A DNA stretch of 64,000 bases from Sulfurimonas autotrophica DSM 16294 (GCF_000147355.1 NC_014506.1:372001-436000), one strand, 5' to 3'; positions 2,351-63,500 are shown, counted from the first letter of the stretch. Translations and numbers: made by a program. Notes: generated from the sequence alone by a model not told the origin.

Positions 2351-2899
2351 ATGATACGAGTTCTTTTATTCTATTTTTTATTAGTCCAGTTGCTTTTTGG
2401 ATATAACTATGATGATTTATTACTCAAAGCACAGGCATCAATTTTTCCAAAAATAATGCTGCTGGATAAAAAGATAGAAAACAAACTTGTAAAAAATAAA
2501 ATAATTTATACAATCGTATATGACGGGAGTGATTATCAAACTGCTTTACATGTAAAGAAATATATAGAGACTACATTTAAAGGCCGTTTTGATAAATATC
2601 CGTACGAGATTCATTTAGTTGATTTTTCTCATCTTTCAACGGACACAAAAGCATCTGCTTTTTATGTTTTAAAGTCATCAACAAAAAATATTCAAAAAGC
2701 TGCAAAAATTGCTTATGAAAAGAGAATAATCAGCTTTTCTTATGATATAAATAATTTAAAATATGGATTACTCTTTTCTCTAATTATAGAAAACTCAACG
2801 GTGCTTTATCTCAACAAAGAGTATCTGCATATAAAGAATATTGATTTTGGAGATTTCTTGCTTCAAATGGTAAAATTTATAGATAAAAACAGCATTTGA
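2351..2899 (+). CDS. YfiR-like (DUF4154-type) periplasmic protein
   Basis: A 182-residue protein with a hydrophobic signal peptide (MIRVLLFYFLLVQLLFG). The mature part has the layout of YfiR-like periplasmic regulators: a short N-terminal helix (KAQASIFPKIMLLDK), a central alpha/beta part and a C-terminal stretch (YLNKEYLHIKNIDFGDFLLQ) similar to the conserved YfiR tail. Known YfiR proteins bind and restrain the periplasmic part of a membrane diguanylate cyclase. The ATG directly abuts the TonB receptor stop, and the GGDEF-EAL gene begins 44 bp later. Family assignment is by pattern only and is remote. Confidence 0.6.
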   Translation: MIRVLLFYFLLVQLLFGYNYDDLLLKAQASIFPKIMLLDKKIENKLVKNKIIYTIVYDGSDYQTALHVKKYIETTFKGRFDKYPYEIHLVDFSHLSTDTKASAFYVLKSSTKNIQKAAKIAYEKRIISFSYDINNLKYGLLFSLIIENSTVLYLNKEYLHIKNIDFGDFLLQMVKFIDKNSI

Positions 2900-2943
2900 T
2901 TTTATATTTATGATAAAATAGTTCTAAAAAATAGGGCTATTAT

Positions 2944-4872: not shown

Positions 4873-4874
4873 GA

Positions 4875-8668: not shown

Positions 8669-9874
8669 ATGAATACACATACTCATAATAAAATCATTGT
8701 TGTCGGCGGCGGTTACGGCGGACTAAAAGCAGTAGAAAATCTTGCCAAACATCAAAATAATCAGATAACACTTTTAGATAAAAATGCCTACCATTTTATG
8801 CAGACGGATGTGTATGAACTTATCGCAAATGAAAAAGATTTTGCAAAAGTGAGCGTAGATTTGTTTACCTATTGCAGCGGATTTGACGGGAATGTCAGTT
8901 TTTATAAACAAGAAGTCGACGATATCGATTTTGAAAATAAAAAAATCATTACTGCCGTACAGCGATTTTCTTATGATTACCTTATTATAGCTGTCGGTGC
9001 AAGGACAAAATTTGTAAAAAGTATAAATGGACTTAAAGAGTATGCCCATGGGGTAAAAGCGCTGCATCGTGCAATGTATTTTAAGCAAAAGTTTGAAATG
9101 TCACTCTTTAAAAAAGTACAAGAGAGCGGTATTACATGTAAGCCTTTAAGTATTGTTGTAGCCGGTGCAGGACTCAGTGGTGTTGAAATAGCTGCACAGA
9201 TGGCATCTTTTGCAAAAGAATTTTATTGTGAAAATAATTTTTTATGTAGAAAATTAAATATTATACTTGTCAGTTCATCAAAACAGATACTCAAAGGATT
9301 GGACAGTTTTTTGGTAGAAAAATCTCAAAAAAGACTGTTTGATTTAGAAGTAGTTATAAAATCACAAGCGAGGGTAATCTCTTTGACAAAAGAGAGTGTT
9401 ACACTCAGCAGCGGAGAAATTATATCCATGGATTTTATGATTTTTGCCGGAGGAATAGAGCCTAACGGGTTAATATATAAACTTGATTTAGCAAAGAATG
9501 AAAGAGGCTTTTTAAATATAAATGAGTGTCTGCAGGCAGATGGGAAAAAAGAAGTTTTTGCCATAGGTGATTGTGCAACGTTATATAATAAAGGCGAGTT
9601 CATCGCACCTACGGCTGATGTAGCTGAACAGATGGGCGAGTTGTGCAGTGAGAATATTATGCGTATTGGTAAAAATCAAGAACTAAAAGAACACAATATA
9701 CGTTCACGAGGCATTTTAATTGCTTTGGGACGTAGATATGCTGTGGGAAAAGTTTTTAATGTACATATCAGCGGATATTTAGCATTTATAATGAAAAAAA
9801 TTATTGAAAAAGTCTATTTTATAAAATTGGACAGGCACTCAAAAAAGGGATGCGACAAAATATTTAAAGTTTAA
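8669..9874 (+). CDS. NDH-2-like FAD/NAD(P) oxidoreductase
   Basis: 401 residues with two Rossmann dinucleotide sites: GGGYGG at 13-18 for FAD, and GAGLSG at about 166-171 for NAD(P)H. A FAIGDCA motif near 300 closes the FAD site. This is the layout of type II NADH:quinone dehydrogenases and relatives such as sulfide:quinone reductase. The paired cysteines expected of sulfide:quinone reductase are not obvious, which favours an NADH dehydrogenase-like role at the membrane face. It sits between tsf and an ABC ATPase, where my memory of the C. jejuni order has no such gene. Its start appears leaderless. Confidence 0.8.
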   Translation: MNTHTHNKIIVVGGGYGGLKAVENLAKHQNNQITLLDKNAYHFMQTDVYELIANEKDFAKVSVDLFTYCSGFDGNVSFYKQEVDDIDFENKKIITAVQRFSYDYLIIAVGARTKFVKSINGLKEYAHGVKALHRAMYFKQKFEMSLFKKVQESGITCKPLSIVVAGAGLSGVEIAAQMASFAKEFYCENNFLCRKLNIILVSSSKQILKGLDSFLVEKSQKRLFDLEVVIKSQARVISLTKESVTLSSGEIISMDFMIFAGGIEPNGLIYKLDLAKNERGFLNINECLQADGKKEVFAIGDCATLYNKGEFIAPTADVAEQMGELCSENIMRIGKNQELKEHNIRSRGILIALGRRYAVGKVFNVHISGYLAFIMKKIIEKVYFIKLDRHSKKGCDKIFKV

Positions 9875-16832: not shown

Positions 16833-18182
16833 TTGGCCATTGCCTTGGCACTTTATACTAAAAATATTATGCTCTCTTTATTTGGCGGAATATTTTTAGG
16901 GCTTTTTTTCCTACATGACTTTTCTGTAATTGCAGCGGTGAACTCCACATTTGAACTGTTTTTTTCTCTTTTGAGTGAAGCCTGGATACTTAAAACCTTA
17001 GCCTTTGCAGTCTTGGTAGGCAGTGTGATGGAACTGATGCAAAAAAGCGGAGGTATCAGCGGTTTTGTCTCTTTTATGACACAAGAAACTGCACTGGTAA
17101 ATTCTCCTCGTTCGGCTTTACTGGTGAGTTATTTTATAGGTGTCATTATTTTTATTGAATCTTCTATAACCTCTCTTATCGCTGGAGCCGTCGGTAGACC
17201 GCTTTGCGATAAAGAGAAAGTTCCGCATGCAAAACTGGCCTTTGTGTGTGACTCCACCTCGGCTCCTATCAGTTCTTTAATTGTTCTTAACGGATGGGGT
17301 GCACTGCTGCTCGGACTTATTGCAACACAGGTGCAAACAGGAATAATATCAGGCGATAATGTCAATATTTTACTGCACAGTGTTGCTTATAACTTTTATG
17401 CTGTGAGTGCTTTAATCGTCACTTTTTTAGCTGTGTGGTTTAACATAAATATAGGTCCGATGAAGAATGCAAAACCCTCTTTAGACAAAGCTTCTTTACA
17501 TGTAAACTCTAAAGTCAGTATGGCATATATGATAATTCCAATATTTTTGATGATTACATTTGTATTTATGTTTTTGTATATAACAGGCAAGGGCGATATG
17601 TTAAAGGGAAGTGGTTCTAGTTCTATCTTTTATACTATGCTTGCCACGCTGATGGTGATGTTTATTTATTACATAGGCACAAAAAACATGTCCGCAAAAA
17701 CCTACACAAAAAGTGCCTACATCGGAGCAAAAAAACTTTTTCCGATTGCTATGATACTGCTTTTTGCTTTTGCAATAGGGGAAGTGACCGTTGATTTAAA
17801 AACAGGGCAGTATTTGGCTTCGCTTGCAAGTGACAACCTCAGTGTGTTTCTTTTAAGCGGTGTGATATTTTTACTCAGTAGTATTATTTCATTTTCTACA
17901 GGAACATCCTGGGGTACTTTTAGTATTATGATACCTATTGCCGTACCGATGGCTGTAGGCATGGATACAGATGTAGCTTTGGCTATAGGAGCCGTCATCA
18001 GCGGCGGTGTTTTTGGAGACCACTGTTCACCCATTTCTGACACGACCATCATATCATCACTCGCAAGTGACTGTGAAGTTGTAGAACATGTTAAAACACA
18101 GCTTCCTTATGCTCTTATAAGCGGAGCTGTCGCACTTGTTTTGTTTATAGTTTTCGGATTTACGACTCTAAATAATAGTTGA
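16833..18182 (+). CDS. NhaC-family Na+/H+ antiporter
   Basis: At least 449 residues with about eleven membrane segments. NhaC-type phrases include FIESSITSLIAGAVGRPL, VCDSTSAPISSLI, FSTGTSWGTFSIMIPIA and GGVFGDHCSPISDTTI. It exchanges sodium for protons. The TTG at 16833 has no ribosome site, and coding-like sequence (ELSFLSVFPSL) runs upstream in frame to ATA 16797 and ATT 16794, preceded by AAGG at 16786-16789. The true start is probably one of these rare codons. Its 3' end overlaps the convergent exonuclease gene by 23 bp. Confidence 0.88.
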   Translation: MAIALALYTKNIMLSLFGGIFLGLFFLHDFSVIAAVNSTFELFFSLLSEAWILKTLAFAVLVGSVMELMQKSGGISGFVSFMTQETALVNSPRSALLVSYFIGVIIFIESSITSLIAGAVGRPLCDKEKVPHAKLAFVCDSTSAPISSLIVLNGWGALLLGLIATQVQTGIISGDNVNILLHSVAYNFYAVSALIVTFLAVWFNINIGPMKNAKPSLDKASLHVNSKVSMAYMIIPIFLMITFVFMFLYITGKGDMLKGSGSSSIFYTMLATLMVMFIYYIGTKNMSAKTYTKSAYIGAKKLFPIAMILLFAFAIGEVTVDLKTGQYLASLASDNLSVFLLSGVIFLLSSIISFSTGTSWGTFSIMIPIAVPMAVGMDTDVALAIGAVISGGVFGDHCSPISDTTIISSLASDCEVVEHVKTQLPYALISGAVALVLFIVFGFTTLNNS

Positions 18183-18968: not shown

Positions 18969-20117
18969 TTGATTGACTCTCCTCTTGTATATCTTTTTAC
19001 GCTTGCCCTGCTTGTAGCGGCTGTGAGCTTTTTACAAATCAAAACAAAATGGAAATTTTTCAGTTATGTGCCTGTTGTGGTGCTCATTTATGCACTTGCA
19101 ATGCTGCTTGCTTCTCTGGGTGTGTTTGAGCAAAACAAAGAAATAACAACAATTTATAAACTCACAAAAACAAATTTACTCCCGGCAATGCTTTTTTTAA
19201 TGCTTTTAGAAGTAGATTTCAAACACTTTTTTAAGCTTGGAAAATCACTTTTGATTGCGTACTCTTTAGCTGCTCTCTCCATTGCATTTTCCTTTATTAT
19301 CGTTGCCTATATATTTGATTTTAACAAAGAAACTGCCGCCGCTTTTGGAGCACTTGCAGGCAGCTGGATGGGCGGCACGGCAAACATGATAGCCGTCGGG
19401 AGTGCTCTACATGTAAGCGAAGATGCTTTTGCATATGCACTTGTCGTGGACAGTGTCAACTATACGCTTTGGGTAATGCTGCTGCTCTTTTTAGTGCCTT
19501 TTGCCAAATTTTTTAACAGATTTACAAAAAGTGAAGAGAAGTTGGCATACTTAGACAAAATCGGCTGTGCCTGTTCTATGGGTGCTAAAAGATACTGGCT
19601 TTTAATAGTGCTTGCTCTTGGCGCTTCACTGCTGAGTCAACTAGTTGCTTCAAAGCTTGTCATACTCAACACCACGACAAGCATTGTGCTCTTTTCTACA
19701 CTCTTAGGCGTAATCGGCTCTTTTACAAAATTGCGTTTTATCAACGGCTCAAGTGAAGTGGCAACAACCATGCTCTACATCTTAATAGCCCTCATAGGCT
19801 CCCGTGCAGTCATAGAAAACTTCAACGGTCTTGGTATGTATGTTTTAGCAGGTTTCGTTATTTTACTTATTCACGCATTGATAATGCTCGCGGGTGCAAA
19901 AATATTCAAACTAGACCTCTTTAGCATCTCAGTCGCCTCTTTAGCAAACATAGGCGGTGTAGCCTCAGCCCCGATTTTAGCAGCAACTTATAACAAAGCA
20001 CTCGTAAGCATAGGCGTACTTATGGCAATCATGGGGTATTTAATAGGAACGTTCGGCGGGCTTTTGGTTGGGAGTGTTTTATTATATTTTACAACCGCGT
20101 CCGGCAATTTCTTCTAG
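18969..20117 (+). CDS. DUF819 family integral membrane protein
   Basis: 382 residues, about ten membrane helices, TTG start with GTAGG upstream. The motifs AGSWMGGTANMIAVGSAL and LANIGGVASAPILAATYN are characteristic of DUF819 (YjcL-like) proteins, which resemble secondary transporters. The substrate is unknown. The last 36 bases overlap the convergent Rrf2 regulator gene. Confidence 0.85.
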   Translation: MIDSPLVYLFTLALLVAAVSFLQIKTKWKFFSYVPVVVLIYALAMLLASLGVFEQNKEITTIYKLTKTNLLPAMLFLMLLEVDFKHFFKLGKSLLIAYSLAALSIAFSFIIVAYIFDFNKETAAAFGALAGSWMGGTANMIAVGSALHVSEDAFAYALVVDSVNYTLWVMLLLFLVPFAKFFNRFTKSEEKLAYLDKIGCACSMGAKRYWLLIVLALGASLLSQLVASKLVILNTTTSIVLFSTLLGVIGSFTKLRFINGSSEVATTMLYILIALIGSRAVIENFNGLGMYVLAGFVILLIHALIMLAGAKIFKLDLFSISVASLANIGGVASAPILAATYNKALVSIGVLMAIMGYLIGTFGGLLVGSVLLYFTTASGNFF

Positions 20118-26028: not shown

Positions 26029-27096
26029 TTGAAAATAAAAAATATACAAACAAACATAGAAAAAATACCGCTTCGTACTCCTTTTGCAACTGCTTTGCGG
26101 CGGGTGGAGAATGTCGAGTTTGTACGGGTCAAGCTTACATGCAACAACGGAGCAACTGCTTATGGAGAAGCACCTGCTACCAAAGCGATTACGGGCGAAG
26201 ATTTAGAGAGTATTATATCTTCTATCGAATCTATAAAAGAAAAACTACTCGGGTTGCCGCTTTTGGAAGCTTTGGAGTCTTTACATGTAAAGGCAATGGG
26301 TTCAAGCGCAAAAGCTGCTCTTGATATGGCGATTGTTGCTCTTATGGTAGAGCAAAAAGGAGAGACTTTGCTGCAATATTTTGGGGCAAAAGATTTCTCT
26401 TGCGTAAAAACGGATGTTACTATCAGTCTTAATGATGCCGATACAATGCTACAAGATGCACAAACAGCCTATAATAACGGTTTTGATATTTTGAAAGTCA
26501 AGCTTGGCAGTGACATAAATCATGCGGTAGATGTCACAAAGGCAATAGCCAAAAAACTTCCACACTCACAACTGCTTATAGATGCTAACCAGGCATGGAA
26601 TCTTGAGACGTCATTATATTATATTGAGGCAGTTAAGGGATTACATGTAAGCTTGATTGAGCAGCCTGTAATTGCGGATGATTTGGAGAGTCTTAAAATT
26701 ATAAGTCACTCAACAGAAATTCCCATACTTGCAGATGAAGCCGTATTTACACTTGAAGATGTAAAAAAAGTTTATGAAAATGGCTGTGCGGACATGATAA
26801 ATATTAAGCTGATGAAGTGCGGCGGACTCAGCAGGGCAAAAGAGATTTTAGAGTTTGCACGAGAGAAAAATATAGGGTGTATGCTCGGCTCGATGCTTGA
26901 AGGTCCTGTTTCGATTTGCGCTGCATATGCGCTTTGTTTTGCATACAGAGATGTTATAAAATATGTAGACTTGGACAGTCCTCTGCTCTACAAAGAAGTG
27001 CCTGATTTTGTCGGAGGTTTTGCAATAAATCGCAACCAGATAAAACCTATAAATCCTGCAAACATAGAAGCGAGTAAAATACCGACTTTGGCGTGA
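26029..27096 (+). CDS. L-Ala-D/L-Glu (dipeptide) epimerase
   Basis: 355 residues, enolase superfamily. The active-site set is visible: KVK (DILKVKLGSD) near 161, metal ligands in LIDANQ, LIEQP and LADEAV, and a second base Lys in INIKLMKCGG. Such enzymes epimerise dipeptides released from peptidoglycan. The start is TTG with no clear ribosome site and a TACAAT box only two bases upstream, so the start is uncertain. The last 109 bases overlap nhaA on the other strand. Confidence 0.88.
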   Translation: MKIKNIQTNIEKIPLRTPFATALRRVENVEFVRVKLTCNNGATAYGEAPATKAITGEDLESIISSIESIKEKLLGLPLLEALESLHVKAMGSSAKAALDMAIVALMVEQKGETLLQYFGAKDFSCVKTDVTISLNDADTMLQDAQTAYNNGFDILKVKLGSDINHAVDVTKAIAKKLPHSQLLIDANQAWNLETSLYYIEAVKGLHVSLIEQPVIADDLESLKIISHSTEIPILADEAVFTLEDVKKVYENGCADMINIKLMKCGGLSRAKEILEFAREKNIGCMLGSMLEGPVSICAAYALCFAYRDVIKYVDLDSPLLYKEVPDFVGGFAINRNQIKPINPANIEASKIPTLA

Positions 27097-28409: not shown

Positions 28410-28415
28410 TTGCAT

Positions 28416-29660
28416 ATGAATTTACAGGATTTAAAAAATACAACTATATTACTGCTTGGAAAGAGCAGGGCATTTAGCGAAGATGAGTTTTTCTCACAGC
28501 TAAAGTTTCATAACATCTCAATAGCGCAAGAGACGGGTGATGATGTACGTTTCATTGTAGAGGGACGTATGATGAGTCCTTATGAGCAAAATATGAGTGA
28601 TGCATTTTATGAGGAAAAAAGATATGAATTTATAAATATAGATGTTTTCGAAAAGCTTTTAGCACAAGAGATAGATAATGATACACTGCTTATGAGTCTG
28701 AAACTCTCAAATGACAAGATGCGACTTAAAAGTTTTATACAAAACAGCTGTATTGACGATACTCTTTTTTTCAAACTTTTAAAAATGTACTCATTTGAGG
28801 GCGAAGATTTTTTTGAAAATGATGACAACCGCGATGTCTCCGCCGCGCTTATCGGCAGATTTTATGAAAATATAGAGAGAAACCATAATGTGCAGTATGC
28901 TACAACGGGCATTTATCATCTTATAGCACAAACTGACAATGAGCAGCTTTTAGAGGCAATAGCACAGCTTACACCTGCTCTACAACATCCAAAAATCATG
29001 AAAGCACTTGCGATGCATGAAAAAACACCGAGAAGTGTGCATAAAATATTTTTAAAAAAAGGTGATGACTCGGTAAAAGAGGCAATGGCTTATAATGCTA
29101 ATTTAGATAAAAGCATAATACACGAACTGATAAAATATGAAGATTTGGCAGCCGTCGTGGCGCAAAACACCAAACTTGACGATGAGTTGTTTGGGTTTTT
29201 AAGCGCATATAAAACTTTTTTGGCAGCGAATGAAACACTTAGTGAGGTCATGCAGCAAGAACTTTTTAGTTTAAATGAAGAACAAGTGCATCTTGCTTTA
29301 GCGCAAAATAGAGGTTTACATGTAAGTATATGCAAACTCTTGTTACATGTAAAGAGTGAGGAAATAAAAAAAGCATTATATATAAACCGTGCAACACCTG
29401 TAGATATTTTACAAAATGCGTATAAAGAAGGTGGGTACAATGAAGCATTGAGTGCAAACAGTGCAACACCTCAAAGTATTTTACAAGAGCTTGCACAGAG
29501 TCAAGACGAGAAAATTCTTTATAATCTGGCAAAAAATGAGAACACACCGGTTGATATTTTGTATCAGCTGCAGCTTGACAGCCGTTTTGAGCGTGCGGTA
29601 AAAACAAATGAAGCCTTTGGAAAATATATACAGAGTCAAAATATAGGATGGTTAGTATGA
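28416..29660 (+). CDS. alpha-helical repeat protein (LRV-like)
   Basis: 414 residues from the ATG at 28416, selected because the TATAAT box lies within the longer frame. There is no signal peptide. The C-terminal half contains about seven helical repeats of 22-25 residues with the pattern N-x-x-T-P-x-x-I-L (NRATPVDIL, NSATPQSIL, NENTPVDIL), like leucine-rich-variant repeats, which bind partners. The N-terminal 150 residues are not recognised. It is co-translated with a MoxR ATPase through an ATGA overlap and so is probably its substrate receptor or target. Confidence 0.75.
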   Translation: MNLQDLKNTTILLLGKSRAFSEDEFFSQLKFHNISIAQETGDDVRFIVEGRMMSPYEQNMSDAFYEEKRYEFINIDVFEKLLAQEIDNDTLLMSLKLSNDKMRLKSFIQNSCIDDTLFFKLLKMYSFEGEDFFENDDNRDVSAALIGRFYENIERNHNVQYATTGIYHLIAQTDNEQLLEAIAQLTPALQHPKIMKALAMHEKTPRSVHKIFLKKGDDSVKEAMAYNANLDKSIIHELIKYEDLAAVVAQNTKLDDELFGFLSAYKTFLAANETLSEVMQQELFSLNEEQVHLALAQNRGLHVSICKLLLHVKSEEIKKALYINRATPVDILQNAYKEGGYNEALSANSATPQSILQELAQSQDEKILYNLAKNENTPVDILYQLQLDSRFERAVKTNEAFGKYIQSQNIGWLV

Positions 29661-33148: not shown

Positions 33149-34417
33149 ATGAATTACATGGATCTAATACTTGATAAACTACACAATAAACAAAACGTTT
33201 TTTTAACCGGCGGTGCGGGTGTTGGAAAAACCACTATTACAAGAGAGATTATCAAGCAGTATGAAAGCGAAGCCAAAAAAGTTGCCAAGCTTGCCTCAAC
33301 AGGAATGGCAGCAACACTGATAAACGGGCAGACACTGCACAGCTTTTTTGATCTTGGAATCGCTTCAGATGTAGAAGAACTGCAAAACAATGCAAAATAC
33401 GAAATCAAAAAAAAGATAAAAAAACTCATATCGAGTATGGATTTAATCGTCATAGATGAAATTTCTATGGTGAGTGATACGCTTTTTGAGATGATAGAAC
33501 TGCGTTTGAATCAGGCAGGATTTAGCGGTTCGCTACTGGTCGTAGGTGATTTTTTACAGCTTCCTCCGGTTGTCCGCGGTTACGGTGAAGTCAAGTTTGC
33601 TTTTGAATCGCCTTCATGGAAAAATTTTGCCTTTGAAAAAGTAGAGTTGACGCATATCTACAGAACGGATGATTTGCGTTTTATAGAACTTTTACATGCG
33701 GTACGATTTGGAACTATTAATGAAGCAGTACATAATCAACTCAATGAATTTATAAAACCTCTGCCAAATGATCTGAGTCAGTTTACATTTTTGTTCGGAA
33801 AAAATATTTCGGCTACAAAACATAACAAAACCCAGCTCGATTTTATAGACGAGGCTTTACATGTAAAGGAAGCACAGGTCGTAAAACACCTTAAATCAAC
33901 ACAAGACAAAGAAGTAGAGCGTTTTATGGATGATGCAAGAATAGATAAAGAACTTGCATTAAAAGTTGGCGCTCCGGTGCTTTTTACACGCAATTCATGG
34001 AACTATTTTAACGGAGAGCGCGGTGTTGTCGTGAATGTGGATGCAAGTTATGTATATGTGCAAAAGAGTGATGGCAAGGTTGTCAAACTCGAGCCGACTG
34101 CCCAAAGTAAAGCACAATGGAAAGAAAAAAGCGTCGAGGGAAAAAAAGAGATGGTTGAAGAGAATATTTTTACCGTGTATCAGTTTCCAATCAAGCTTGC
34201 TTTTGCCATAACTATACATAAATCGCAGGGAATGAGCATAGAAGATTTAATTATTGACACGAATGAAATTTTTGCACCCTCACAATTTTATGTAGCACTT
34301 TCACGTTCATCAAACCCTGCAAGACTAACGCTCATCGCACCAAGTAAACAATGGTATGATTTGGCATATGTAAACCCAAAAGCTATGATATTTACTCAAA
34401 AAGAGCAAAGTTGTTGA
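33149..34417 (+). CDS. Pif1/RecD-like DNA helicase
   Basis: 422 residues, superfamily 1B. Walker A GGAGVGKT at 21-28, motif II VIDEISMV near 103-110, GDFLQLPPV motif III and the C-terminal AITIHKSQGMS and YVALSRS motifs. A 5'-3' helicase for replication or repair intermediates. It lies divergent from the double-receiver gene and overlaps the next gene by 7 bp. Confidence 0.9.
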   Translation: MNYMDLILDKLHNKQNVFLTGGAGVGKTTITREIIKQYESEAKKVAKLASTGMAATLINGQTLHSFFDLGIASDVEELQNNAKYEIKKKIKKLISSMDLIVIDEISMVSDTLFEMIELRLNQAGFSGSLLVVGDFLQLPPVVRGYGEVKFAFESPSWKNFAFEKVELTHIYRTDDLRFIELLHAVRFGTINEAVHNQLNEFIKPLPNDLSQFTFLFGKNISATKHNKTQLDFIDEALHVKEAQVVKHLKSTQDKEVERFMDDARIDKELALKVGAPVLFTRNSWNYFNGERGVVVNVDASYVYVQKSDGKVVKLEPTAQSKAQWKEKSVEGKKEMVEENIFTVYQFPIKLAFAITIHKSQGMSIEDLIIDTNEIFAPSQFYVALSRSSNPARLTLIAPSKQWYDLAYVNPKAMIFTQKEQSC

Positions 34418-35298
34418 AAAAAGTAGACAGCGGCGTGCTTTTTATGCTTGGAAGTGCTTTGATTTCTGCACTTAACGGGGCATTGACAAAAATACTCTCA
34501 GAAGATATTTCTGCTTTGGAAATTGTCTTTTTCCGTAATTTTATCGGTGTTTTTATTATATTCTATGCACTCAAACATACTGCGCCAAAACTCACAGGCG
34601 GTAAAATTCATATGCTTTTTACCCGTGGGCTTTTTGGGTTTATGGCAATGATTTTGTTTTTTTATACGATTACGGTTATTCCGCTGGGTGAGGCAATAAC
34701 GCTGAACAAAACTTCGCCGTTTTTTGTGACACTTTTCGCTTATTTTCTTTTACATGAGCATTTGAACAGGCGAACACTGTTTGCACTGCTCATAGGTTTT
34801 TTGGGTGTTGTTCTAATTGTTAAACCTTTTGGTATGAGCTTCTCGTATGCCCATTTTTTAGGAATACTGGGCGGTTTTTTTGCAGCTGCTGCTTATACAA
34901 CCATAAAAAAAATAAAAGACATTTATGACTCGCGCGTGATAGTGCTCTCTTTTGTAGGTATGGGAACACTCTTGCCCGCACTGTTGTTTTTAACGGCACC
35001 TTTTATTCATGCACCTGCATCACTGGAGTTTTTATTTCCTAAATTTATTCTCCCTAATACTTTACATGTATGGCTGTTAATTATCTTAATGGCATTTATC
35101 TCTACGCTTTCGCAATGGCTCTTAACCAAAGCATACAGTGCATCGAACTTAAGTATTGTAGGGGTTGTAAGTTACACAAATATCCCTTTTGCTATCGGTT
35201 TTGGCACTCTGCTTGGCGATAATTTCCCGGATACATTGACGTTTTTAGGTATATTGTTTATTGTGCTTGGCGGTATATTGGTGAGTAAAAGACAGTAA
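34411..35298 (+). CDS. EamA/DMT-family transporter
   Basis: 295 residues, ten membrane helices in two EamA repeats (about 8-135 and 150-292), with typical EIVFFRNF and LGFLGVVLIVKPF segments. The start is TTG at 34411 or 34414, both inside the end of the helicase gene. The substrate is unknown; family members export amino acids or metabolites. Confidence 0.88.
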   Translation: MLKKVDSGVLFMLGSALISALNGALTKILSEDISALEIVFFRNFIGVFIIFYALKHTAPKLTGGKIHMLFTRGLFGFMAMILFFYTITVIPLGEAITLNKTSPFFVTLFAYFLLHEHLNRRTLFALLIGFLGVVLIVKPFGMSFSYAHFLGILGGFFAAAAYTTIKKIKDIYDSRVIVLSFVGMGTLLPALLFLTAPFIHAPASLEFLFPKFILPNTLHVWLLIILMAFISTLSQWLLTKAYSASNLSIVGVVSYTNIPFAIGFGTLLGDNFPDTLTFLGILFIVLGGILVSKRQ

Positions 35299-39525: not shown

Positions 39526-40788
39526 ATGGCATTGGCATTTGGTTTATTTTTAGTAACACTGGTCTTTATTATTTGGCAGCCCAAGGGCTTACAAATTGGA
39601 ACTACTGCGGTAATTGGCGCAATAGTTGCAATAGTTTTGGGTATCGTAAGTTTTGATGATGTTATCACCGTTATAGACATCGTCTGGGATGCAACTCTTG
39701 CTTTTATAGGTATTATCATATTATCAATGGTCCTTGATGAAATAGGCTTTTTTGAGTGGGCAGCCATTAAGATGGCACGTTTAAGCGGTGGAAGCGGCAA
39801 TAAAATGTTTGTCTATATTTTACTTCTCGGTGCTGTTGTGGCAGCTTTTTTTGCCAATGACGGTGCTGCTTTGATTTTGACGCCTATTTTGCTGGCAAAA
39901 ATGAAATACCTTAAAATGAAACCGCTTCCGATTTTTGCTTTTTTAATGGCAGGCGGTTTTATCGGTGATGCTGCGTCAAATCCGCTTGTTATTTCAAACC
40001 TTACAAACATTGTGACAGTGGGATATTTTGATATTGGTTTTGTAGAATATGCTAAAAATATGTTCCTGCCAAACCTGCTGAGTATTATGGCTTCCATTGC
40101 AATTTTATGGGTTTACTTTAGAAAAGATATCCCTTTACATGTAAACGTAGATGAACTCCCTCAAGCTGCTTCTGTCATTAAAAATCAAACAATGTTTAAA
40201 TTTTCTTGGGGTTTCCTGGCACTTCTAATGGGTGGCTACTTTATAGGGGATAGACTGCATTTACCCGTTTCAGTCTTTGCTCTTGGCGGTGCTTTACTCT
40301 TTTTGGCAATCGCAAACCATTATAAAGCAGTTAAACCGATTATGACAATAAAAGCCGCACCCTGGCAAGTTGTATGGTTTAGTATCGGGCTGTATGTTGT
40401 AGTGTACGGCTTAAAAAATGCAGGGCTGACAGACATCATTGCTTCATGGATTGAATTACTCATTGCGCAGGGGGAAGTTGCTGCCGTCATCGGTACAGGC
40501 TTTTTATCGGCTCTAATCAGTTCCATAATGAACAATATGCCGACAATCATGATAATGGACATCGCCATAGACAAAGTTGGTTACGCTGGACATGAAGCAC
40601 TGGTTTATGCAAATATTTTAGGCTCAAATCTTGGACCGAAAATGACACCGATAGGTTCTCTTGCAACACTTCTATGGTTACATGTACTCGCACAAAAAGG
40701 TGTCAAAATCGGCTGGGGTGAGTATATGAAAGTAGGACTTGTTGTTACACCTCCAGTGTTATTTATTGCATTATTAGGTTTAATTTAA
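39526..40788 (+). CDS. arsB: ArsB arsenite efflux permease
   Basis: 420 residues from the ATG at 39526, chosen for the AGAGG site before it. Eleven to twelve membrane helices with the ArsB-type segments FFANDGAALILTPI, GFIGDAASNPLVISNLTN and MNNMPTIMIMDIAI. It expels arsenite. Divergent from arsRC and sharing their operator. Confidence 0.93.
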   Translation: MALAFGLFLVTLVFIIWQPKGLQIGTTAVIGAIVAIVLGIVSFDDVITVIDIVWDATLAFIGIIILSMVLDEIGFFEWAAIKMARLSGGSGNKMFVYILLLGAVVAAFFANDGAALILTPILLAKMKYLKMKPLPIFAFLMAGGFIGDAASNPLVISNLTNIVTVGYFDIGFVEYAKNMFLPNLLSIMASIAILWVYFRKDIPLHVNVDELPQAASVIKNQTMFKFSWGFLALLMGGYFIGDRLHLPVSVFALGGALLFLAIANHYKAVKPIMTIKAAPWQVVWFSIGLYVVVYGLKNAGLTDIIASWIELLIAQGEVAAVIGTGFLSALISSIMNNMPTIMIMDIAIDKVGYAGHEALVYANILGSNLGPKMTPIGSLATLLWLHVLAQKGVKIGWGEYMKVGLVVTPPVLFIALLGLI

Positions 40789-42490: not shown

Positions 42491-43762
42491 ATGAAAAAAA
42501 TAATTTTATCTTTGGCAGTTCCTTTTGTGATGTACGCACAAAACCTGTCCCAACTCTTTGATGCACTTAAAGTCCATTCACAAACAAAGTCAGACGAAAT
42601 AGCGGTACAAAAGAGCGAAGTGCAACAAGATTTAGTCTATGCAAATTTATATCCAAAAGTGAATTTATTTGGTAGTTTTGACAACTACTCAAGTCCGACA
42701 AATATGAAACCAATAGCACCAAATGTTTTGAAGCCAATGCTTTCAGATCAGTCTATAGCACAGCCATATAGCTATAATATTTACAAAACAGGTGCTAACT
42801 TCACTATGCCAATTTTTGTCAAGTTTATTTATACAGCGGCAGACAAAGCAAAAGCACTGCAAAAAAGTGCAAAGGCAAAAAAGCATATAAATCTTTTGAA
42901 AAATGAAGCGCTTATAGTAGGCGCGAATGCAAATTATTTATATCTTGATTCACTGCTTAAAGCTTTACATGTAAAAGAAGAATCATTGCAGGAGACTCAA
43001 AAAACAACACAGATAAAAGTTGACAACGGCAGAGCACCGGAGTCGGCACTCTATAAAATAAACGATGCACTTAATCAGGTGGCAATTGCAAAAAATAACA
43101 TACAATTGGAAAAGAAAAAGCTTATAAGTACAATTCAAACATTGACAGGCATAGTTCTTGATAAACCGGTGTCTATGCATGAACTTGCATCATTTAGCAA
43201 AGGACAAATGGGTGCACTACAGCCGTTGCAGGACAAACTTCGCGCAGACAGACTGGGTATAAAAGCTGAAAAAGAGAAACTCTACCCGACGCTTGTCGCA
43301 CATGGCAATTATGCTTTTTCAAAAGCAACCGCTTATAATAATGACAAAGATGTCAATGAAGAGTATGGCAATGTCGGCGTTGTTTTAAATATTCCTCTTT
43401 TGGCAATGGACAGTTATGCTAGCATAAAACTCTCTCAAATAGAGCTGCGTGCAGGTGAAATAGAACTCGCAAAACTTTCAGATGAACTCACGGCTCAGGC
43501 AAAAATGCTTGAAGACTCACTGGAACTTTTGAAAAACTCACAAAAATTGTATGTACACAGTGTTGAAGATAAGAAAAAACTTTTAGAAATCGCGAAAGTA
43601 AATTATAACAGTGGCAGACTCTCAACAGAAGAGTATTTACGATATGAAGATGATGTTGTTTCGCAAGAAGCAAATTTATACAAAATAGAGGCAACAAGGT
43701 GGCAGACGCTTATGCAGTTGGCAGTGATATATGCAAATAATATAGAGGAGATGGTTCAATGA
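42491..43762 (+). CDS. TolC-like outer-membrane efflux protein
   Basis: 423 residues with a signal peptide (ends VMYA) and the long helical hairpins of the OEP family, for example VDNGRAPESALYKINDALNQ and VNYNSGRLSTEEYLRYED. It would form the outer-membrane duct of the pump. Its stop overlaps the adaptor start by 4 bp (ATGA). Confidence 0.92.
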   Translation: MKKIILSLAVPFVMYAQNLSQLFDALKVHSQTKSDEIAVQKSEVQQDLVYANLYPKVNLFGSFDNYSSPTNMKPIAPNVLKPMLSDQSIAQPYSYNIYKTGANFTMPIFVKFIYTAADKAKALQKSAKAKKHINLLKNEALIVGANANYLYLDSLLKALHVKEESLQETQKTTQIKVDNGRAPESALYKINDALNQVAIAKNNIQLEKKKLISTIQTLTGIVLDKPVSMHELASFSKGQMGALQPLQDKLRADRLGIKAEKEKLYPTLVAHGNYAFSKATAYNNDKDVNEEYGNVGVVLNIPLLAMDSYASIKLSQIELRAGEIELAKLSDELTAQAKMLEDSLELLKNSQKLYVHSVEDKKKLLEIAKVNYNSGRLSTEEYLRYEDDVVSQEANLYKIEATRWQTLMQLAVIYANNIEEMVQ

Positions 43763-50637: not shown

Positions 50638-50639
50638 AA

Positions 50640-52319
50640 TTACCTATCCTTTGTAATTCTCAATACTTCTTCTACAGTTGTTATACCTTTTAGAGCTTTT
50701 TTGATTCCATCTGCTATCATAGGTTTATATAGTCCGTTTGATTCTGCATACTCAATTATAGCTATTTTGTTTGCATTTTCTGATATCATTTTTGCCAATA
50801 CAGTATCTATAGTTAATATTTCTGATATCATGGTTCTATTGAAGTAGCCTGTAAAATCACATTTGGAACATCCTTGCCCTGTATAAAACTTTATTTCAGG
50901 ATTAGATAAATATTTTTCAATTTTGCTTAATTGCGCTTTTGTAAGTTTAATCTCATTTTTACAATACGGACAAATTTTTCTAACAAGTCTTTGTCCTACA
51001 ATTCCAACTAATGCATCAGCGATTAAATAAGGTTTTAATCCCATTTGAATCATTCTAGGGATTGCTCCCGGAGCATCATTTGTGTGCAGAGTTGTAAATA
51101 CCAGGTGCCCTGTCAAAGCAGCTTGTGATGCAGAATTTAATGTTTCAAAATCACGAACTTCCCCAATGAGTATAATATCGGGATCTTGTCGTAAAAAAGA
51201 TCTTACAGCCAATGAAAAAGTTAATCCTGTTTTTTCATTTATTTGAATTTGCTGCACAAGCGGCAATCTGTATTCAACAGGGTCTTCTGCTGTCATTACT
51301 TTATTTGAAATATTTTTTATCTCATTTAATGCTGCATAGAGTGTGGTGGTTTTACCACTTCCTGTAGGCCCTGTGATAAGCACTATTCCATTTGGAGAAT
51401 GAATAAAATCCATAAAATTATCTAAATTTTCATCTTCAAAACCTAAATCTTCTAATTTTAGAAGAACTTTGTCACGATCAAGTATCCTCATAACGATTGA
51501 CTCACCAAATATTGTTGGTGTCGTTGAAAGTCTGAAGTCATAATTTTTTTCATTAATAACAAGACTAAATCTACCATCTTGAGGAATTCTTTTTTCTGAA
51601 ATATCCAAATTTCCTAAAAGTTTTATTCGTGAAGAGAGAGCATTATATATTTCACTATCAAAAACAAAATTTTCATGAAGTATCCCATCTATTCTTGAAC
51701 GAACTATCATCTCTTTTTCATCCGGTTCTATATGTATATCACTCGCTCTTTTATTGATGGCTTCTTTTGCTATGAATAAAATAAGCTTCATAATAGCACT
51801 ATTTTCATCCTCTTTTTTTAAGCCTTGTGTTGTTAACTCTTTTTTTACTTCAGAAATAATTTCTCTAGTAGTTTGAAGTATTTTTATCCGATGAAAAATT
51901 ACATGTATATCATCACTGTAAGCCAAATAAATTTTGACCGGTTTTATAGATATTGTTCTTTCTAATGCTTCTAAAGCATCATAATTTAAGGGGTCGCTTG
52001 TTGCAATATAAACAAAGTCTTCATCTTCTTTAAAAGGTATAGCCTGAGCAGCTTGGAGTATATGCAGGGGGTATTTTGTAGCGATTGCATTAAAATTTAT
52101 ATTTTCGCCGTAAAGATCAACAAAATCTATATCTAATTGTTTAGATAAGGTTTTTAGTAAATCTCTTTGGGTTACATATCCTTCAGCTATAAATATTTCA
52201 CCTAATTTTTTAGTGTAATTTAACTCTTTTTGTTTTTTTAAAGCTTCGTTAAGTTGATCTTTAGTTATAAAATCATTTTTTATTAATATATCACCTAATC
52301 TTACTTTTCTTTGTATCAT
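50640..52319 (-). CDS. mshE: pilus assembly ATPase (GspE/MshE)
   Basis: 559 residues. N-terminal MshEN-type domain (about 5-150) that in MshE binds c-di-GMP, then the ATPase core: Walker A GPTGSGKTT near 318, Asp box, Walker B ILIGEVRD, and a zinc site C-x2-C (CPYCKNEI) plus C-x2-C (CSKCDFTG). It powers pilus extension. Several c-di-GMP enzymes occur in the window, which fits this control. Confidence 0.94.
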   Translation of the reverse strand: MIQRKVRLGDILIKNDFITKDQLNEALKKQKELNYTKKLGEIFIAEGYVTQRDLLKTLSKQLDIDFVDLYGENINFNAIATKYPLHILQAAQAIPFKEDEDFVYIATSDPLNYDALEALERTISIKPVKIYLAYSDDIHVIFHRIKILQTTREIISEVKKELTTQGLKKEDENSAIMKLILFIAKEAINKRASDIHIEPDEKEMIVRSRIDGILHENFVFDSEIYNALSSRIKLLGNLDISEKRIPQDGRFSLVINEKNYDFRLSTTPTIFGESIVMRILDRDKVLLKLEDLGFEDENLDNFMDFIHSPNGIVLITGPTGSGKTTTLYAALNEIKNISNKVMTAEDPVEYRLPLVQQIQINEKTGLTFSLAVRSFLRQDPDIILIGEVRDFETLNSASQAALTGHLVFTTLHTNDAPGAIPRMIQMGLKPYLIADALVGIVGQRLVRKICPYCKNEIKLTKAQLSKIEKYLSNPEIKFYTGQGCSKCDFTGYFNRTMISEILTIDTVLAKMISENANKIAIIEYAESNGLYKPMIADGIKKALKGITTVEEVLRITKDR

Positions 52320-54029: not shown

Positions 54030-54030
54030 T

Positions 54031-55545
54031 TTACTTAACCTTTGATGAATTAAAATCTAATTTATATTTTGAAGTTGAAAAGAATTTATCATCATCTATA
54101 TCATCAATAGTCGGCATAGATGAATTTTTAACAATTTTCGGTGTTATTAAAATGAACATTTCTGTTCTGCTTTTCTTGTTATTAGTATATCTAAAAATAG
54201 TGCTTAGTATCGGAATGTCTCCAAGAATTGGTATTTTTTTTGAGTCTTTGCCTTTTGTAGCACTTATTAGTCCGCCGATAAGTACCTTTTGTCCGTTTTT
54301 AACTTTTACAACAGATGTCATTTGTTTAATCTTTGTATCAGGTGGAATTTCTCTTATGCTGGTTGTAGGAGTATTGTCCGCAGAAAGAGAACTTACAACA
54401 GGATTAATACTCATAAGTATTTCATTGCTATCGGTAATTTCCGGTATTACATATAAAGTGATGCCTATAAATGTCGAGCCGAGAGAAAAGGTATTTGTAC
54501 CCGCAGCAGTGCCGCCCGTTGTAGTAACTGATCCTGTTTGATATTTATAACTTAACTGCTGGCCGACATTTACAACTGCAGGTTGATTATTCATAGTCAA
54601 AATTTTTGGATTTGACATAACTTTGACATCACCGAAAGTATTTAAGTATTTAAAAAAATTGGATGTTGAAAAATTATAAGCAATACTATAAGAATTATTA
54701 AAAGTGTTTCCACCGGTGCCTTGTGTACCACCTAACGTACCGTTTAAAGATACATTTAACTGACTCCAGTCAATTCCCGAAGAGTGACTGTCATCATAAA
54801 CAAGCTCTATTAATTTAACTTCTATTAATACCTGTTTATGCATTCTTTTCATAAGCAGGTCTAAAAAGTTTTGTATTTTTTGCAAATCTTTTTTATCTGC
54901 ATTTACGGTTAGCAGTGATGCATCTCTATTTATAAACATATTTACATTTTTTGGATCAAGAAAAAGTTTTGTAAGATTGTTTTTTAAGTTATCCCAAAAC
55001 GTAAATTTTGATTTTGTTACTATTGTTGTCTGGTCATTTGATGAACTGTTTCCACTGCTATTATTGGTATTATTGGTATTATTGGTATTATTGGTAGTAG
55101 TATTATTGGTAGTAGTATTTATTCCGGAAGAACTGCCGGAACCTGAATTTATCGATTTGCTGCTCTCACTGGTTAACTCGCTAACATTTATATAATCAAT
55201 ATTAAAAGTTTTTGTTTTCATATATTGTACATTTATAAAATGTTTTTCTCTGTCATATGTATAAAATAAATTTGCCTCATTAAATAAAAAATTTAAAAAA
55301 CTTTCTAATGTATAATCTTTTATATTAACATAATCAAGGCTTTTATTTATTTTTTGTTTAGATTCTTTATCTTTAAAAAAGATTGATATATTACATTTTT
55401 GAGATAATTCTTTTAGTACGTTAGAAATTTTTAAACTTTTGCTCCCTTTATCATAGGCACTCAACGAGAAAAGATGCTCATCACAATTATTTGTATTTGC
55501 AGTTAGAATCCGTGTAAATATAAAAAATATGAATATATATTTCAC
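54031..55545 (-). CDS. mshL: secretin (MshL/PilQ type)
   Basis: 504 residues from GTG. Signal peptide ends LTANT. N-terminal STN-like domain (about 20-110), a low-complexity Asn/Thr linker (about 128-172), N-domain and secretin core with VGQQLSYKYQTG, VIPEI and VKVKNGQKVLIGGLI. Outer-membrane gate for the pilus. Confidence 0.93.
   Translation of the reverse strand: MKYIFIFFIFTRILTANTNNCDEHLFSLSAYDKGSKSLKISNVLKELSQKCNISIFFKDKESKQKINKSLDYVNIKDYTLESFLNFLFNEANLFYTYDREKHFINVQYMKTKTFNIDYINVSELTSESSKSINSGSGSSSGINTTTNNTTTNNTNNTNNTNNSSGNSSSNDQTTIVTKSKFTFWDNLKNNLTKLFLDPKNVNMFINRDASLLTVNADKKDLQKIQNFLDLLMKRMHKQVLIEVKLIELVYDDSHSSGIDWSQLNVSLNGTLGGTQGTGGNTFNNSYSIAYNFSTSNFFKYLNTFGDVKVMSNPKILTMNNQPAVVNVGQQLSYKYQTGSVTTTGGTAAGTNTFSLGSTFIGITLYVIPEITDSNEILMSINPVVSSLSADNTPTTSIREIPPDTKIKQMTSVVKVKNGQKVLIGGLISATKGKDSKKIPILGDIPILSTIFRYTNNKKSRTEMFILITPKIVKNSSMPTIDDIDDDKFFSTSKYKLDFNSSKVK
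55059..55119 (-). repeat. 9-bp tandem repeats in secretin gene
   Basis: ATTATTGGT units recur about six times, in frame, giving the NNT/NTT-rich linker. Copy number could change by slippage without shifting the frame. Confidence 0.8.
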
Positions 55546-59946: not shown

Positions 59947-60566
59947 ACTCTCTTATTAATTTGGAATTGTCCTATATTTTGAGCTATGAATGACATTTGT
60001 ACAAAAGAATTACCAAGAGCCGAAGCTTTTTTCTTAACATCGACTTTTATTGTGATTCTTTTTGTATTTGTTGTATTGCTTTTTGTTGTAGATGAAAAAG
60101 TATTGCCATTTTCTGCAATATCTTCTAAATAATCTACGCTGACATTTAAGTCGTATGCTCTTGAATTAGTATTGTTTGTTGCATTAATAGTGTCAAAATC
60201 ATCCATATCGTTATTATAGCTTTCATTGCTGTCACTACCTAAAGAAGATGCATTTTTGGCATTTTTACAGTTTCTTGAACCGTCAAATCCGCCTATGCGA
60301 TAAGTTGTTGTTGTATTACAGTCATAATCAGAGTCTCCGTTTGCTACAAGTAAAATATCATTATATTTTATATTTTCCTCATCCCATGCAGTTGATTTTA
60401 TAAGCCCAATATATGCTATGGCATTATACATAGCTTCACCTTTTAGATTTTGGACAGAAACTTTGGCAGATAATTGTAATATTTTTGGGAGTACAGTAAA
60501 AGCTATAGCTATAATAACCATTGATAAAATTAATTCTATAAGTGTAAAAGCATTTTTTTTAATCAT
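59937..60566 (-). CDS. minor pilin, MshD-like
   Basis: 209 residues. Prepilin motif A-FTLIELILSMVIIAIAFTVLP with Glu5; CNTTTTYRIG and SRNCKNA give one cysteine pair. ATG overlaps the end of the adhesin gene (ATGA). Confidence 0.82.
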   Translation of the reverse strand: MIKKNAFTLIELILSMVIIAIAFTVLPKILQLSAKVSVQNLKGEAMYNAIAYIGLIKSTAWDEENIKYNDILLVANGDSDYDCNTTTTYRIGGFDGSRNCKNAKNASSLGSDSNESYNNDMDDFDTINATNNTNSRAYDLNVSVDYLEDIAENGNTFSSTTKSNTTNTKRITIKVDVKKKASALGNSFVQMSFIAQNIGQFQINKRVWN

Positions 60567-63500
60567 CTTAACAATCTTACTCCCCGACTATTTTTACTGA
60601 CATTCGCATCAAAATGTACACCTGTCGTATTTCCGCTTGTAACGGCATTGCCTTCAGATTTTTTTTCATAGTTATATTTTATACATGGGTGTTGTGTACA
60701 ATTACTTCCAGCACTGTAATCATAAGTATTGCCAAAATTTTGTGGTGCATACCATAACCATTTATCTACTCCCAAATGTATAAAATATGTACCTTCATTT
60801 TTGCCGGCATTATGAACACTAATATCAAAAACCCCGTTCCCTTTAAATGTAACTGACGTGTTAAAATCAGCAGATTCTACAGAATCAGTTTTGTCGGTAG
60901 AAGAACTTATGTTGGAGTCGCTTATATTCCCGTCATTTTGTGTTGTATGTTTATTAATTAAATACCAATCTAATAACTCCTCTTTAAAACCGTCAACATA
61001 ATCATTATCAGCACTATCATATACTAAAATTTCGGCACTTACATTGTCATCTGTTTGTGATGTTGCAAGGTCTTGAGTATATGTACGTGCAAAGTAAAAG
61101 GTAGCATTCCCGTCAGTTGCGGCATTTGAAAGTGATATGTTTTCATCAGAAACATTAACATCCGTAATATTAAAGTCAAAAGGATTAACGGTTTTAGAAT
61201 AGTTCCTGTCAAAATTTATAAACACTTTTAGAAGTGTACTTCCATTGTGATCAGTTGTAAAATTTTCTTTTGGATATGATGTTATATTTATATCTACATT
61301 TTTATTGACTATATTTAAAGATGAGTTCAGATCTGAATCATCTTGATAAATATATAATATTTTAGATAAATTACCGTCTCCTATGCTGCTGTGTGAAATG
61401 TTTATATCGATGTTTTTAGCATAGCAGTTTTTATTATAATTTTTTGCAGCTTCATTTTGTTTATTTTGAGCAGTGACATTTAAGTCTAATCTTGTTGACA
61501 TATTTAAGTCTTGAGAGATATAGGTAAATTCATTATTTTCATCAAAGTTGTACAAAATAGAATCTATTTTAAAGTGATGCGGTAAAACTGTAAGTCTGGT
61601 TGCATTTTCATCAATTCGAGTATCTGTATCTGTATTCCAATGCCCGCTTATATTTTGATCTTTACAATCAATTCCTGCAAATCTATTTGTACATGTAATG
61701 TCTCTATCTGTAATATTCAGGTCTATTTTTCCAACTTCATTATAGTTGGATGTGACGGTTACATTTCCATCATTAAAATTGATACTGCCGTTAAAGTCTC
61801 CATTTATACAATTTGTATTTATTTCATTTACATGTAAATGAAAACTTGACCCGTTACTTTCATTATAATCACTTGCATTAGCATCACTTCCATACACTTT
61901 TGCAGCGTAAGATATGTTGAAGTCTTCTCCTGCATATATCTGCGTGGATGGCGGGTATATAATAAATCTGTCCGGTCTTATGGTAAAATTGTCCGTTGCA
62001 TTTGTGTCATTACTATCTATGCTTGACATGCACTCCGCATCTTGTATGTTTTTAAACCATTTTATGTATAAAGTGGCGTTTACACCTCCGCCTATTGCCC
62101 TGATAACAGTAAATGAGGCATTTTTTTCTTTATTGTCACTCCATATTGTTTTATTGTAATCCCCCGCATATCCGCTGGTTGACTCAACTTTAGCGCACAC
62201 GGTTCCGTTAAAGTCTTGTTTAGTACCATTTTCATCCAGTGACATAAGTGTAAGTTGAAACTCTCGGCTTACTATTTTTGTTGAAATATTTCTGTCATCT
62301 TCACCCCTGAAAATATCTCTTGCATCAAATTGATAATTTCTTATTGGCGGTTGAGTGCCTCCGCACTCCGGCGCAGTTCTATCTGAACCGTCATAATTTT
62401 TCCCATTATTTTCATTGCCATATATAGTTTGTATTTGAGAGTTGCTTAATGCTTTATCAAAGATTTTAAATTCATCGACACTTGCACCTATTGATTGAGC
62501 ATTTGTTACGTTATCGTTACTGTTATAATCACTATTAAATAATAATCCGAGGTTTCCTCTATTTGGATGAGTAGTAAATGTATGTTCTTTGTTTGTATCA
62601 AGATAAAAATCTGTTCCGTTATTGGTAATTACAAAGGTAAGCATATACCAACCACTTAAATTTTGTGGATTAAAATTCATAGATTTACTGTCATGGTCAT
62701 CATCAATATTTAAAGTCCACTTATTTCTTCTTATGTCCTTCGTGAAGTATATAAAATCTTTATTACTGCCTGTTCTATCGGCTATATTAAAATACTGTAC
62801 TCTTTTTCTGCCGCTTCTAAAGATTTTATGTCCATTGGTATTAAGCGGAAATTTAATCCAAGTCGTAAGAGTGTATTTATGTGGCAGTGATAAGTCTGTT
62901 TTTGAAATAATTGCTTTATCATCACTGGCAGTACTGTTTATATCTCCGGCTCTGTAAATTTTCCCATCCTCAATAGTATCGGCATTGTTTAGCGCTGAAG
63001 CATTATAGTCGTTTTCAAGGCTTCCAAAATTTTTAATTTCATAAGTGTTACTGCCGCTATCCCAGCTGCACTCATCCATATGATAATTAATGATTGGTGT
63101 AAGTGAAGGAGTTTCACCGCTACAGCTGTTTGGACAACTAGAAAGTGTTTGGTTGTCAAAAACATGATTATAATTATAATCTCCGCTTACGCCTTCCCAA
63201 AAATTTCCTTTATAATCATTTCCATTCTTTTCAGTTCTAGCCAAATTTTCTTTTGGTGCGCCGTATATACAGTTATTGTTTACTTTTGCATTAGTTTCCC
63301 AGTTATGAACATAAAGATCATAAAATGAAGAATCATTATTTTTATAAAAACAACTGTCCTTTATCTGAATATTATTGGTGTTTGTATCAAAAAAGATTGT
63401 ATGATTTTTTTGACTAACAATCTTGCTTTTTTCAATATTCGGTTTTCCATTTTTTAGTTCAAGTGCAATGCCTGTTACATTAATATCTGAATTTTTGATG

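What the first reader, a model, noticed from the sequence alone, without database searches (positions are those of the whole stretch)
2544..61843. TTACATGTAA palindrome iterated at least eleven times, mostly inside genes
By eye I find the 10-mer at 2546, 9132, 17496, 26281, 26641, 29316, 29343, 33857, 40135, 42965 and 61829. Several extend to CTTTACATGTAAAG (2544, 26279, 33855), and the copy at 61822-61843 is a perfect 22-bp palindrome. Base composition of about 65% A+T predicts roughly 0.2-0.3 copies (hand estimate). Ten of eleven are read in frame as Leu-His-Val; only 9132 is in another frame. This resembles a highly iterated palindrome such as cyanobacterial HIP1, perhaps a methylation, segregation or mismatch-repair signal. 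It is shared by unrelated genes, so it is not gene regulation in a simple sense.
Basis: partly seen in the sequence, partly recalled or inferred. Interest (0 to 1): 0.75.

Follow-up and report, generated by a model that had tools for sequence, protein, structure and literature searches.

The report
Highly iterated palindrome in sulfur-cycling Campylobacterota
A 10-letter DNA palindrome, TTACATGTAA, is scattered hundreds to over a thousand times through the genomes of Sulfurospirillum and some Sulfurimonas bacteria, is kept in place for its DNA sequence even where it alters proteins, and has been lost repeatedly, which suggests a 'self' tag read by an unknown protein, perhaps during DNA uptake.

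Summary
TTACATGTAA occurs 11 times in the window and 340 times in its genome, Sulfurimonas autotrophica OK10 (about 5 expected; the reversed control word occurs once). Protein- and codon-preserving shuffles give 7.6 copies against 74 in a 464-kb sample. The motif also moves protein sequence: the tripeptide Leu-His-Val is 4 times commoner than expected, and most copies are spelled by the palindrome. In 399 genomes of the order, the core TACATGTA is massively iterated (about 90-1,730 copies) in 43 of the 44 sampled Sulfurospirillaceae and in some Sulfurimonadaceae; the other families stay near chance. Closely related species switch it on and off. There are dialects (TTACATGTAA versus CTACATGTAG). 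Individual sites stay in place far longer than background DNA in maintaining lineages and decay at the background rate in lineages that lost it. So the DNA word is actively maintained and not essential. No DNA-methyltransferase family of four tested is common to the carriers, so HIP1's methyltransferase link is not met. Pilus and ComEC genes are present in nearly all genomes, carriers or not. Best mechanism, inferred and not shown: a DNA-uptake-sequence-like self tag. The reading protein is unidentified. I found no paper in the held library describing the motif.

The parts
2546..2555 (.). TTACATGTAA, inside CTTTACATGTAAAG; read TALHVK in ORF 2351-2899 (no Pfam match)
9132..9141 (.). TTACATGTAA in the other open frame (ITCK), in ORF 8669-9874, pyridine nucleotide-disulfide oxidoreductase-like
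17496..17505 (.). TTACATGTAA, read LHV, in ORF 16833-18182, Na+/H+ antiporter family
26281..26290 (.). TTACATGTAA, inside CTTTACATGTAAAG; read LHV in ORF 26029-27096, dipeptide epimerase-like
26641..26650 (.). TTACATGTAA, read LHV, second copy in ORF 26029-27096
29316..29325 (.). TTACATGTAA, read LHV, in ORF 28401-29660
29343..29352 (.). TTACATGTAA, read LHV, in ORF 28401-29660, 17 bp after the previous copy
33857..33866 (.). TTACATGTAA, inside CTTTACATGTAAAG; read LHV in ORF 33149-34417, RecD-like helicase
40135..40144 (.). TTACATGTAA, read LHV, in ORF 39466-40788, ArsB
42965..42974 (.). TTACATGTAA, read LHV, in ORF 42491-43762, outer membrane efflux protein
61828..61837 (.). TTACATGTAA, centre of the perfect 22-bp palindrome 61822-61843; read LHV in ORF 60563-63793 (minus strand)
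19408..19415 (.). core-only copy TACATGTA (CTACATGTAA)
35063..35070 (.). core-only copy TACATGTA (TTACATGTAT)
40679..40686 (.). core-only copy TACATGTA (TTACATGTAC)
51900..51907 (.). core-only copy TACATGTA (TTACATGTAT)
61690..61697 (.). core-only copy TACATGTA (GTACATGTAA)

Best explanation
TTACATGTAA is a species-level DNA tag. Shown: it is iterated genome-wide, maintained for its DNA sequence at individual positions, tolerated inside genes at a cost to protein sequence, varied in dialects, and dispensable (repeatedly lost). Inferred: the two-fold symmetric site, with an almost invariant TACATGTA core and graded flanks (C-T-T before the core on each strand), is read by one sequence-specific, probably dimeric, DNA-binding factor. 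Inferred, my most likely mechanism: the factor biases uptake or recombination of DNA in natural transformation, so that DNA carrying the tag preferentially replaces DNA that has lost it. That drive keeps each site in place and enriches sites wherever they are tolerable, as for the uptake sequences of Neisseriaceae and Pasteurellaceae. When the factor is lost or changes specificity, sites decay at the background rate or a new dialect spreads.
For: Copy number and density: 340 in S. autotrophica, 1,484 in the 3.18-Mb genome G207, about 840-1,500 in most members of genus g20 (Sulfurospirillum) and down to 49 in others; Neisseriaceae uptake sequences run from roughly 900 to 3,600 copies (PMC3630211). 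DNA-level maintenance: Sulfurospirillum maintainers keep the core at 68% of aligned coding sites against 28% of background 8-mers, while the loser G113 keeps 25% against 28%; among Sulfurimonadaceae, maintainers keep 44% against 15%, losers 14% against 14%; G137/G426 versus G183 is 6 of 7 kept versus 0 of 7. At 80% DNA identity all five G207 core sites of the atp block are intact in G239, background 23%. Losses are nested in the tree: G113 (109 cores) and G151 (342) inside the clade with 1,259-1,727; G183 (99) beside G137 (608); G149 (32) and G021 (113) beside G361 (527). Proteins are bent to the motif: LHV 70 observed against 17 expected in G000, 55 spelled by the motif, and no excess in non-carriers. 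Dialects: CTACATGTAG 62-225 copies in several genomes of both families and 1-7 in genus g20. Uniform density and random spacing. ComEC found in 78 of 80 genomes (the other two are incomplete drafts) and PilC-type T2SSF in all 56 tested, so uptake machinery is available. Campylobacter jejuni, in the same order, takes up only DNA methylated at the palindrome RAATTY (PMC10046745).
Against: No reader protein was found. Known DUS and USS are not palindromic. ComEC and PilC do not separate carriers from losers. I found no report of natural transformation in these genera in the held library. An intracellular binding protein with a chromosomal role would predict most of the same observations. The pairwise retention counts are not independent of phylogeny and come from one 20-kb block.
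Confidence: 0.45

Rival explanations
1. Chromosome-service site: the palindrome is bound inside the cell by a homodimeric nucleoid, repair or recombination protein, and selection keeps about one site per 2-6 kb.
For: Two-fold symmetry with graded flanks looks like a homodimer site; uniform genome-wide density; position-specific maintenance. The same 10-mer is found as paired operator-like sites in promoters of unrelated bacteria, e.g. beside an Rrf2-like regulator, so it is a plausible target for dimeric DNA-binding proteins.
Against: Repeated loss shows dispensability. Spacing is random, not regular, and there is no ori-ter bias in the sample. Selection on each of over 1,000 individually redundant sites, many changing amino acids, needs implausibly strong per-site effects (inference).
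Confidence: 0.27
2. HIP1-type, methyltransferase-linked palindrome: an orphan DNA methyltransferase acts on the core and methylation-directed repair accumulates the site.
For: One-base deviants concentrate at the outermost position, as for HIP1 (PMC4390886).
Against: PF01555 absent from G000, G011, G207, G229, G137; PF02086 absent from G000, G011, G032, G126; PF00145 absent from G000, G011, G137, G402, G055, G290; PF02384 in G137 only a 4.6e-5 match in a 238-aa frame. No family tested is common to carriers. MT-A70, EcoRI-type and other small families were not tested.
Confidence: 0.1
3. Mutational or repair bias: a sequence-specific nicking, mismatch-repair or gene-conversion activity creates the word, with no function for the word itself.
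For: Explains excess in permissive DNA (in Sulfurospirillum about 0.6-1.5 per kb intergenic versus 0.15 in coding sequence of the sampled loci) and loss when the activity is lost.
Against: A mutational bias by itself gives turnover, not near-complete retention of the same positions at 80% identity.
Confidence: 0.13
4. Chance, codon usage or a conserved LHV peptide motif.
For: Most in-gene copies read Leu-His-Val; one site in atpG is an old protein feature shared with some non-carriers.
Against: Synonymous shuffles give 7.6 against 74; intergenic copies; a second frame is used; LHV has no excess in non-carriers.
Confidence: 0.01

Closest known systems
HIP1 (GCGATCGC) and alternate HIPs of cyanobacteria
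   Same: Short perfect palindrome iterated genome-wide, mostly inside genes; deviants mainly at the outermost base; replaced or lost in some relatives.
   Different: Unrelated sequence, AT-rich, Campylobacterota; no common methyltransferase family among carriers.
DNA uptake sequences (DUS) of Neisseriaceae and their dialects
   Same: About 10-bp word in hundreds to thousands of copies; conserved core with dialect variation (PMC3630211); tolerated in genes and between genes.
   Different: DUS is not palindromic and has a known receptor (ComP); here no receptor and no transformation data.
Campylobacter jejuni RAATTY (CtsM) uptake discrimination
   Same: Palindromic self-recognition word in the same order, coupled to natural transformation (PMC10046745).
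   Different: RAATTY is a methylation mark of a 6-bp word with about 30,000 sites (PMC7785942); CtsM-type (PF02086) enzymes are absent from carriers G000 and G011 (that CtsM belongs to PF02086 is from memory).
Nucleoid and segregation sites (Noc, MatP, SlmA, KOPS, Chi; from memory)
   Same: Repeated short motifs read by a chromosomal protein.
   Different: Those are fewer, regionally biased or orientation-dependent; this one is uniform, symmetric and usually more numerous.

Membership tests
HIP (highly iterated palindrome, generic) | Perfect palindrome grossly over-represented genome-wide | tested here: met
   340 copies in G000 against about 5 expected, reversed control word 1
HIP (highly iterated palindrome, generic) | Not explained by codon usage or protein sequence | tested here: met
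   74 against 7.6 in synonymous shuffles
HIP1 | Sequence GCGATCGC or a GC-rich alternate in cyanobacteria | tested here: not met
   Word is TTACATGTAA; genome is S. autotrophica OK10, length 2,153,198 bp
HIP1 | Cognate DNA methyltransferase present in carriers | tested here: not met
   None of PF01555, PF02086, PF00145, PF02384 common to carriers; small families untested
DNA uptake sequence (DUS/USS) | Hundreds to thousands of copies of a 9-12-bp word, with dialects between relatives | tested here: met
DNA uptake sequence (DUS/USS) | Natural transformation machinery present | tested here: met
   ComEC in 78 of 80 and T2SSF in 56 of 56 genomes, carriers and non-carriers alike
DNA uptake sequence (DUS/USS) | Specific receptor that binds the word | not tested
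   No candidate identified
DNA uptake sequence (DUS/USS) | Word raises uptake or transformation | not testable with these tools
   Needs experiment
DNA uptake sequence (DUS/USS) | Non-palindromic word | tested here: not met
   Word is perfectly symmetric; this is a feature of all known cases (from memory) rather than a strict definition
Transcription-factor operator regulon | Sites in promoters of co-regulated genes | tested here: not met
   74 of 83 copies in the G000 sample are inside coding sequence

The most novel reading that the evidence does not exclude
A previously undescribed, methyltransferase-independent class of palindromic self-DNA tag in Campylobacterota, read by an unknown dimeric receptor in transformation or recombination, that spreads by molecular drive, splits into dialects and is repeatedly switched off, reshaping many proteins as it does so.
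Probability: 0.4. Interest if true: 0.88.

Novelty: new variant of a known kind. Interest (0 to 1): 0.76.

Why it matters
Highly iterated palindromes are a long-standing puzzle (HIP1) without an agreed function. Here a comparable element exists in culturable genera (Sulfurimonas, Sulfurospirillum), without a shared methyltransferase, with dialects, and with closely related species in which it has just been lost. That makes function testable: the lost gene can be sought by comparing G113/G151 with their S. multivorans-clade sisters, and the uptake hypothesis tested by ordinary transformation assays. If it is an uptake tag, it would be a palindromic one and would explain species barriers to gene flow in an ecologically important group.

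Tried and rejected
Methyltransferase link: four Pfam families searched in 30-43 genomes, none common to carriers. Competence genes as the on/off switch: ComEC and PilC-type T2SSF are present in carriers and losers alike. Regular spacing or ori-ter gradient: none. Promoter or regulon role: mostly inside genes. Hairpin or terminator: a 10-bp palindrome has no loop, and copies are not concentrated after genes in S. autotrophica. Viral origin: 47 viral stretches with paired motifs, mostly with few copies, no clearly motif-dense virus (weak test). Not achieved: a gene-by-gene comparison of G113 with sister genomes. A search for plasmid copies of AtpD to name relatives was uninformative.

Full report
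WHAT IS THERE. The window holds exactly eleven TTACATGTAA. Its genome is one 2,153,198-bp contig, the published length of Sulfurimonas autotrophica OK10 (PMC3035374). The genome holds 340 copies; the reversed control word AATGTACATT occurs once. Dinucleotide shuffles of the window give 0.14 per 64 kb, i.e. about 5 per genome.

MOTIF ANATOMY. In a 464-kb sample of the genome (window plus twenty 20-kb stretches) 83 copies are found against 1.25 expected by a second-order Markov model. The core TACATGTA is nearly invariant: one-base deviants occur mostly at the outermost base (C/A/G at position 1: 15, 12, 11 copies), inner deviants are near background. Each half-site prefers C-T-T before TACATGTA. 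This symmetric, graded pattern is what a homodimeric binding protein would give (inference).

NOT CODON USAGE, BUT PROTEINS ARE AFFECTED. Shuffling synonymous codons while keeping every protein gives 7.6 copies against 74. LHV itself is enriched (70 against 17), 55 of 70 being spelled by the motif; other carriers also show excess LHV, while non-carriers G012, G073 and G296 show none. So the DNA word has pushed protein sequence.

DISTRIBUTION. Over 399 genomes of the order, TACATGTA is iterated about 90-1,730 times in 43 of the 44 sampled members of family f20 (the exception, G073, has 28) and in a subset of family f1; all other families are at or near the control. Family f20 includes Sulfurospirillum deleyianum (G100: 2,306,351 bp, PMC3035281), S. 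diekertiae (G174) and S. cavolei (G185) (contig lengths). G361 (2,201,561 bp) and G207 (3,175,729 bp) match S. denitrificans and S. multivorans by length (from memory).

DIALECTS. G361 and G032 favour CTACATGTAG in sampled sequence. Whole-genome counts of CTACATGTAG: G032 214, G006 192, G256 202, G309 220, G339 225, G297 122, G361 70, G205 62, but only 1-7 in genus g20 and 3 in S. autotrophica. The outer base therefore changed in both families while the core stayed.

MAINTENANCE AND LOSS. A tree of 13 proteins of the atp block places G113 (109 cores) and G151 (342) inside a Sulfurospirillum clade with 1,259-1,727 cores, G183 (99) next to G137 (608), and G149 (32) and G021 (113) next to G361 (527). 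In aligned atp blocks, G207 and G239 share 80% identity and 23% of background 8-mers, yet all five G207 core sites are intact in G239; in G113 one of five remains (background 33%). Codon alignments of the same genes: Sulfurospirillum maintainers 358/529 kept against 28% background; to G113 11/44 against 28%; Sulfurimonadaceae maintainers 56/127 against 15%, losers 28/206 against 14%; same-residue codons are identical in 88% inside the motif versus 56% elsewhere among Sulfurospirillum maintainers. These pair counts share ancestry and come from one genomic block, so no p-value is claimed; but maintainers exceed background two- to three-fold while losers sit at it. The word is thus actively maintained, and the maintenance is dispensable.

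PLACEMENT. Density along the S. autotrophica chromosome is uniform and spacing is random. In sampled Sulfurospirillum DNA (mostly the atp block) copies are 4-10 times denser between genes than in genes; in Sulfurimonas autotrophica there is no such clear preference.

MECHANISM. Methyltransferases: PF01555, PF02086 and PF00145 are absent from G000 and G011, and no family of the four tested is common to carriers; MT-A70 and EcoRI-type families were not tested. Uptake machinery (ComEC, T2SSF) is present in nearly all genomes, carriers or not, so it permits but does not prove an uptake role. I favour a DNA-uptake-like self tag (0.45) because drive explains strong maintenance of individually redundant, protein-altering sites, dialects and repeated loss; C. 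jejuni shows that this order uses palindromic self-recognition in transformation (PMC10046745). An intracellular chromosome-service protein is the main rival (0.27). The reader protein remains unidentified; that is the central gap.

NOVELTY. No paper in the held library describes the word in bacteria of this group; subscription journals are not covered. It works like HIP1 and like DUS, but fails HIP1's methyltransferase link and, as a palindrome, differs from known DUS. I file it as a new variant of a known kind.

Noticed in passing
window 49399-55545 (minus strand): A type IV pilus/T2SS-like locus: T2SSF (49399-50637), T2SSE ATPase with MshEN domain (50640-52319) and secretin (54031-55545). 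The genome has 10 T2SSF domain matches, i.e. about five such systems, unusually many. The stretch between the motif copies at 42965 and 61828 that contains it holds no full motif copy.
   Followed up: partly
G073 stretches L067-L070: In a Sulfurospirillaceae genome without TACATGTA excess, TCATGA/ATCATGAT is mildly over-represented (18 against 5.4; TATCATGATA 4 against 0.4), perhaps a further dialect.
   Followed up: no
G113 stretches L075-L078; G296 stretches L083-L086: Unexplained repeated 12-mers (e.g. CTAGCAACACTA and CAGGCGGAACAC in G113, GTTAAGAGTTAA in G296), 6-8 copies each per 80 kb.
   Followed up: no
L195, L260 (Bacillaceae); L204; L222, L242, L244 (Endozoicomonas): Paired TTACATGTAA sites lie in intergenic or promoter positions, e.g. 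between an Rrf2-like regulator and an NmrA-like gene in L195 and before an MNT-like nucleotidyltransferase gene in L204: candidate operators of unrelated regulators.
   Followed up: partly
L207, L251 (bin labelled Dysgonamonadaceae): Local arrays of TTACATCTAA/TTACATGTAA at about 20-bp spacing; a repeat of its own kind or a mis-binned contig.
   Followed up: no
G111:C30:13558-14595: A cytosine-methyltransferase match with eleven in-frame TGA codons, suggesting a contig from an organism or virus that reads TGA as an amino acid, i.e. contamination of the bin.
   Followed up: no
G000 and relatives, genome-wide: The hexamer AAAGAG is over-represented in every genome sampled, carrier or not (e.g. 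1,103 against 622 in G000); GATGAA/TCATCA is also high in G000. Probably codon usage; untested.
   Followed up: no
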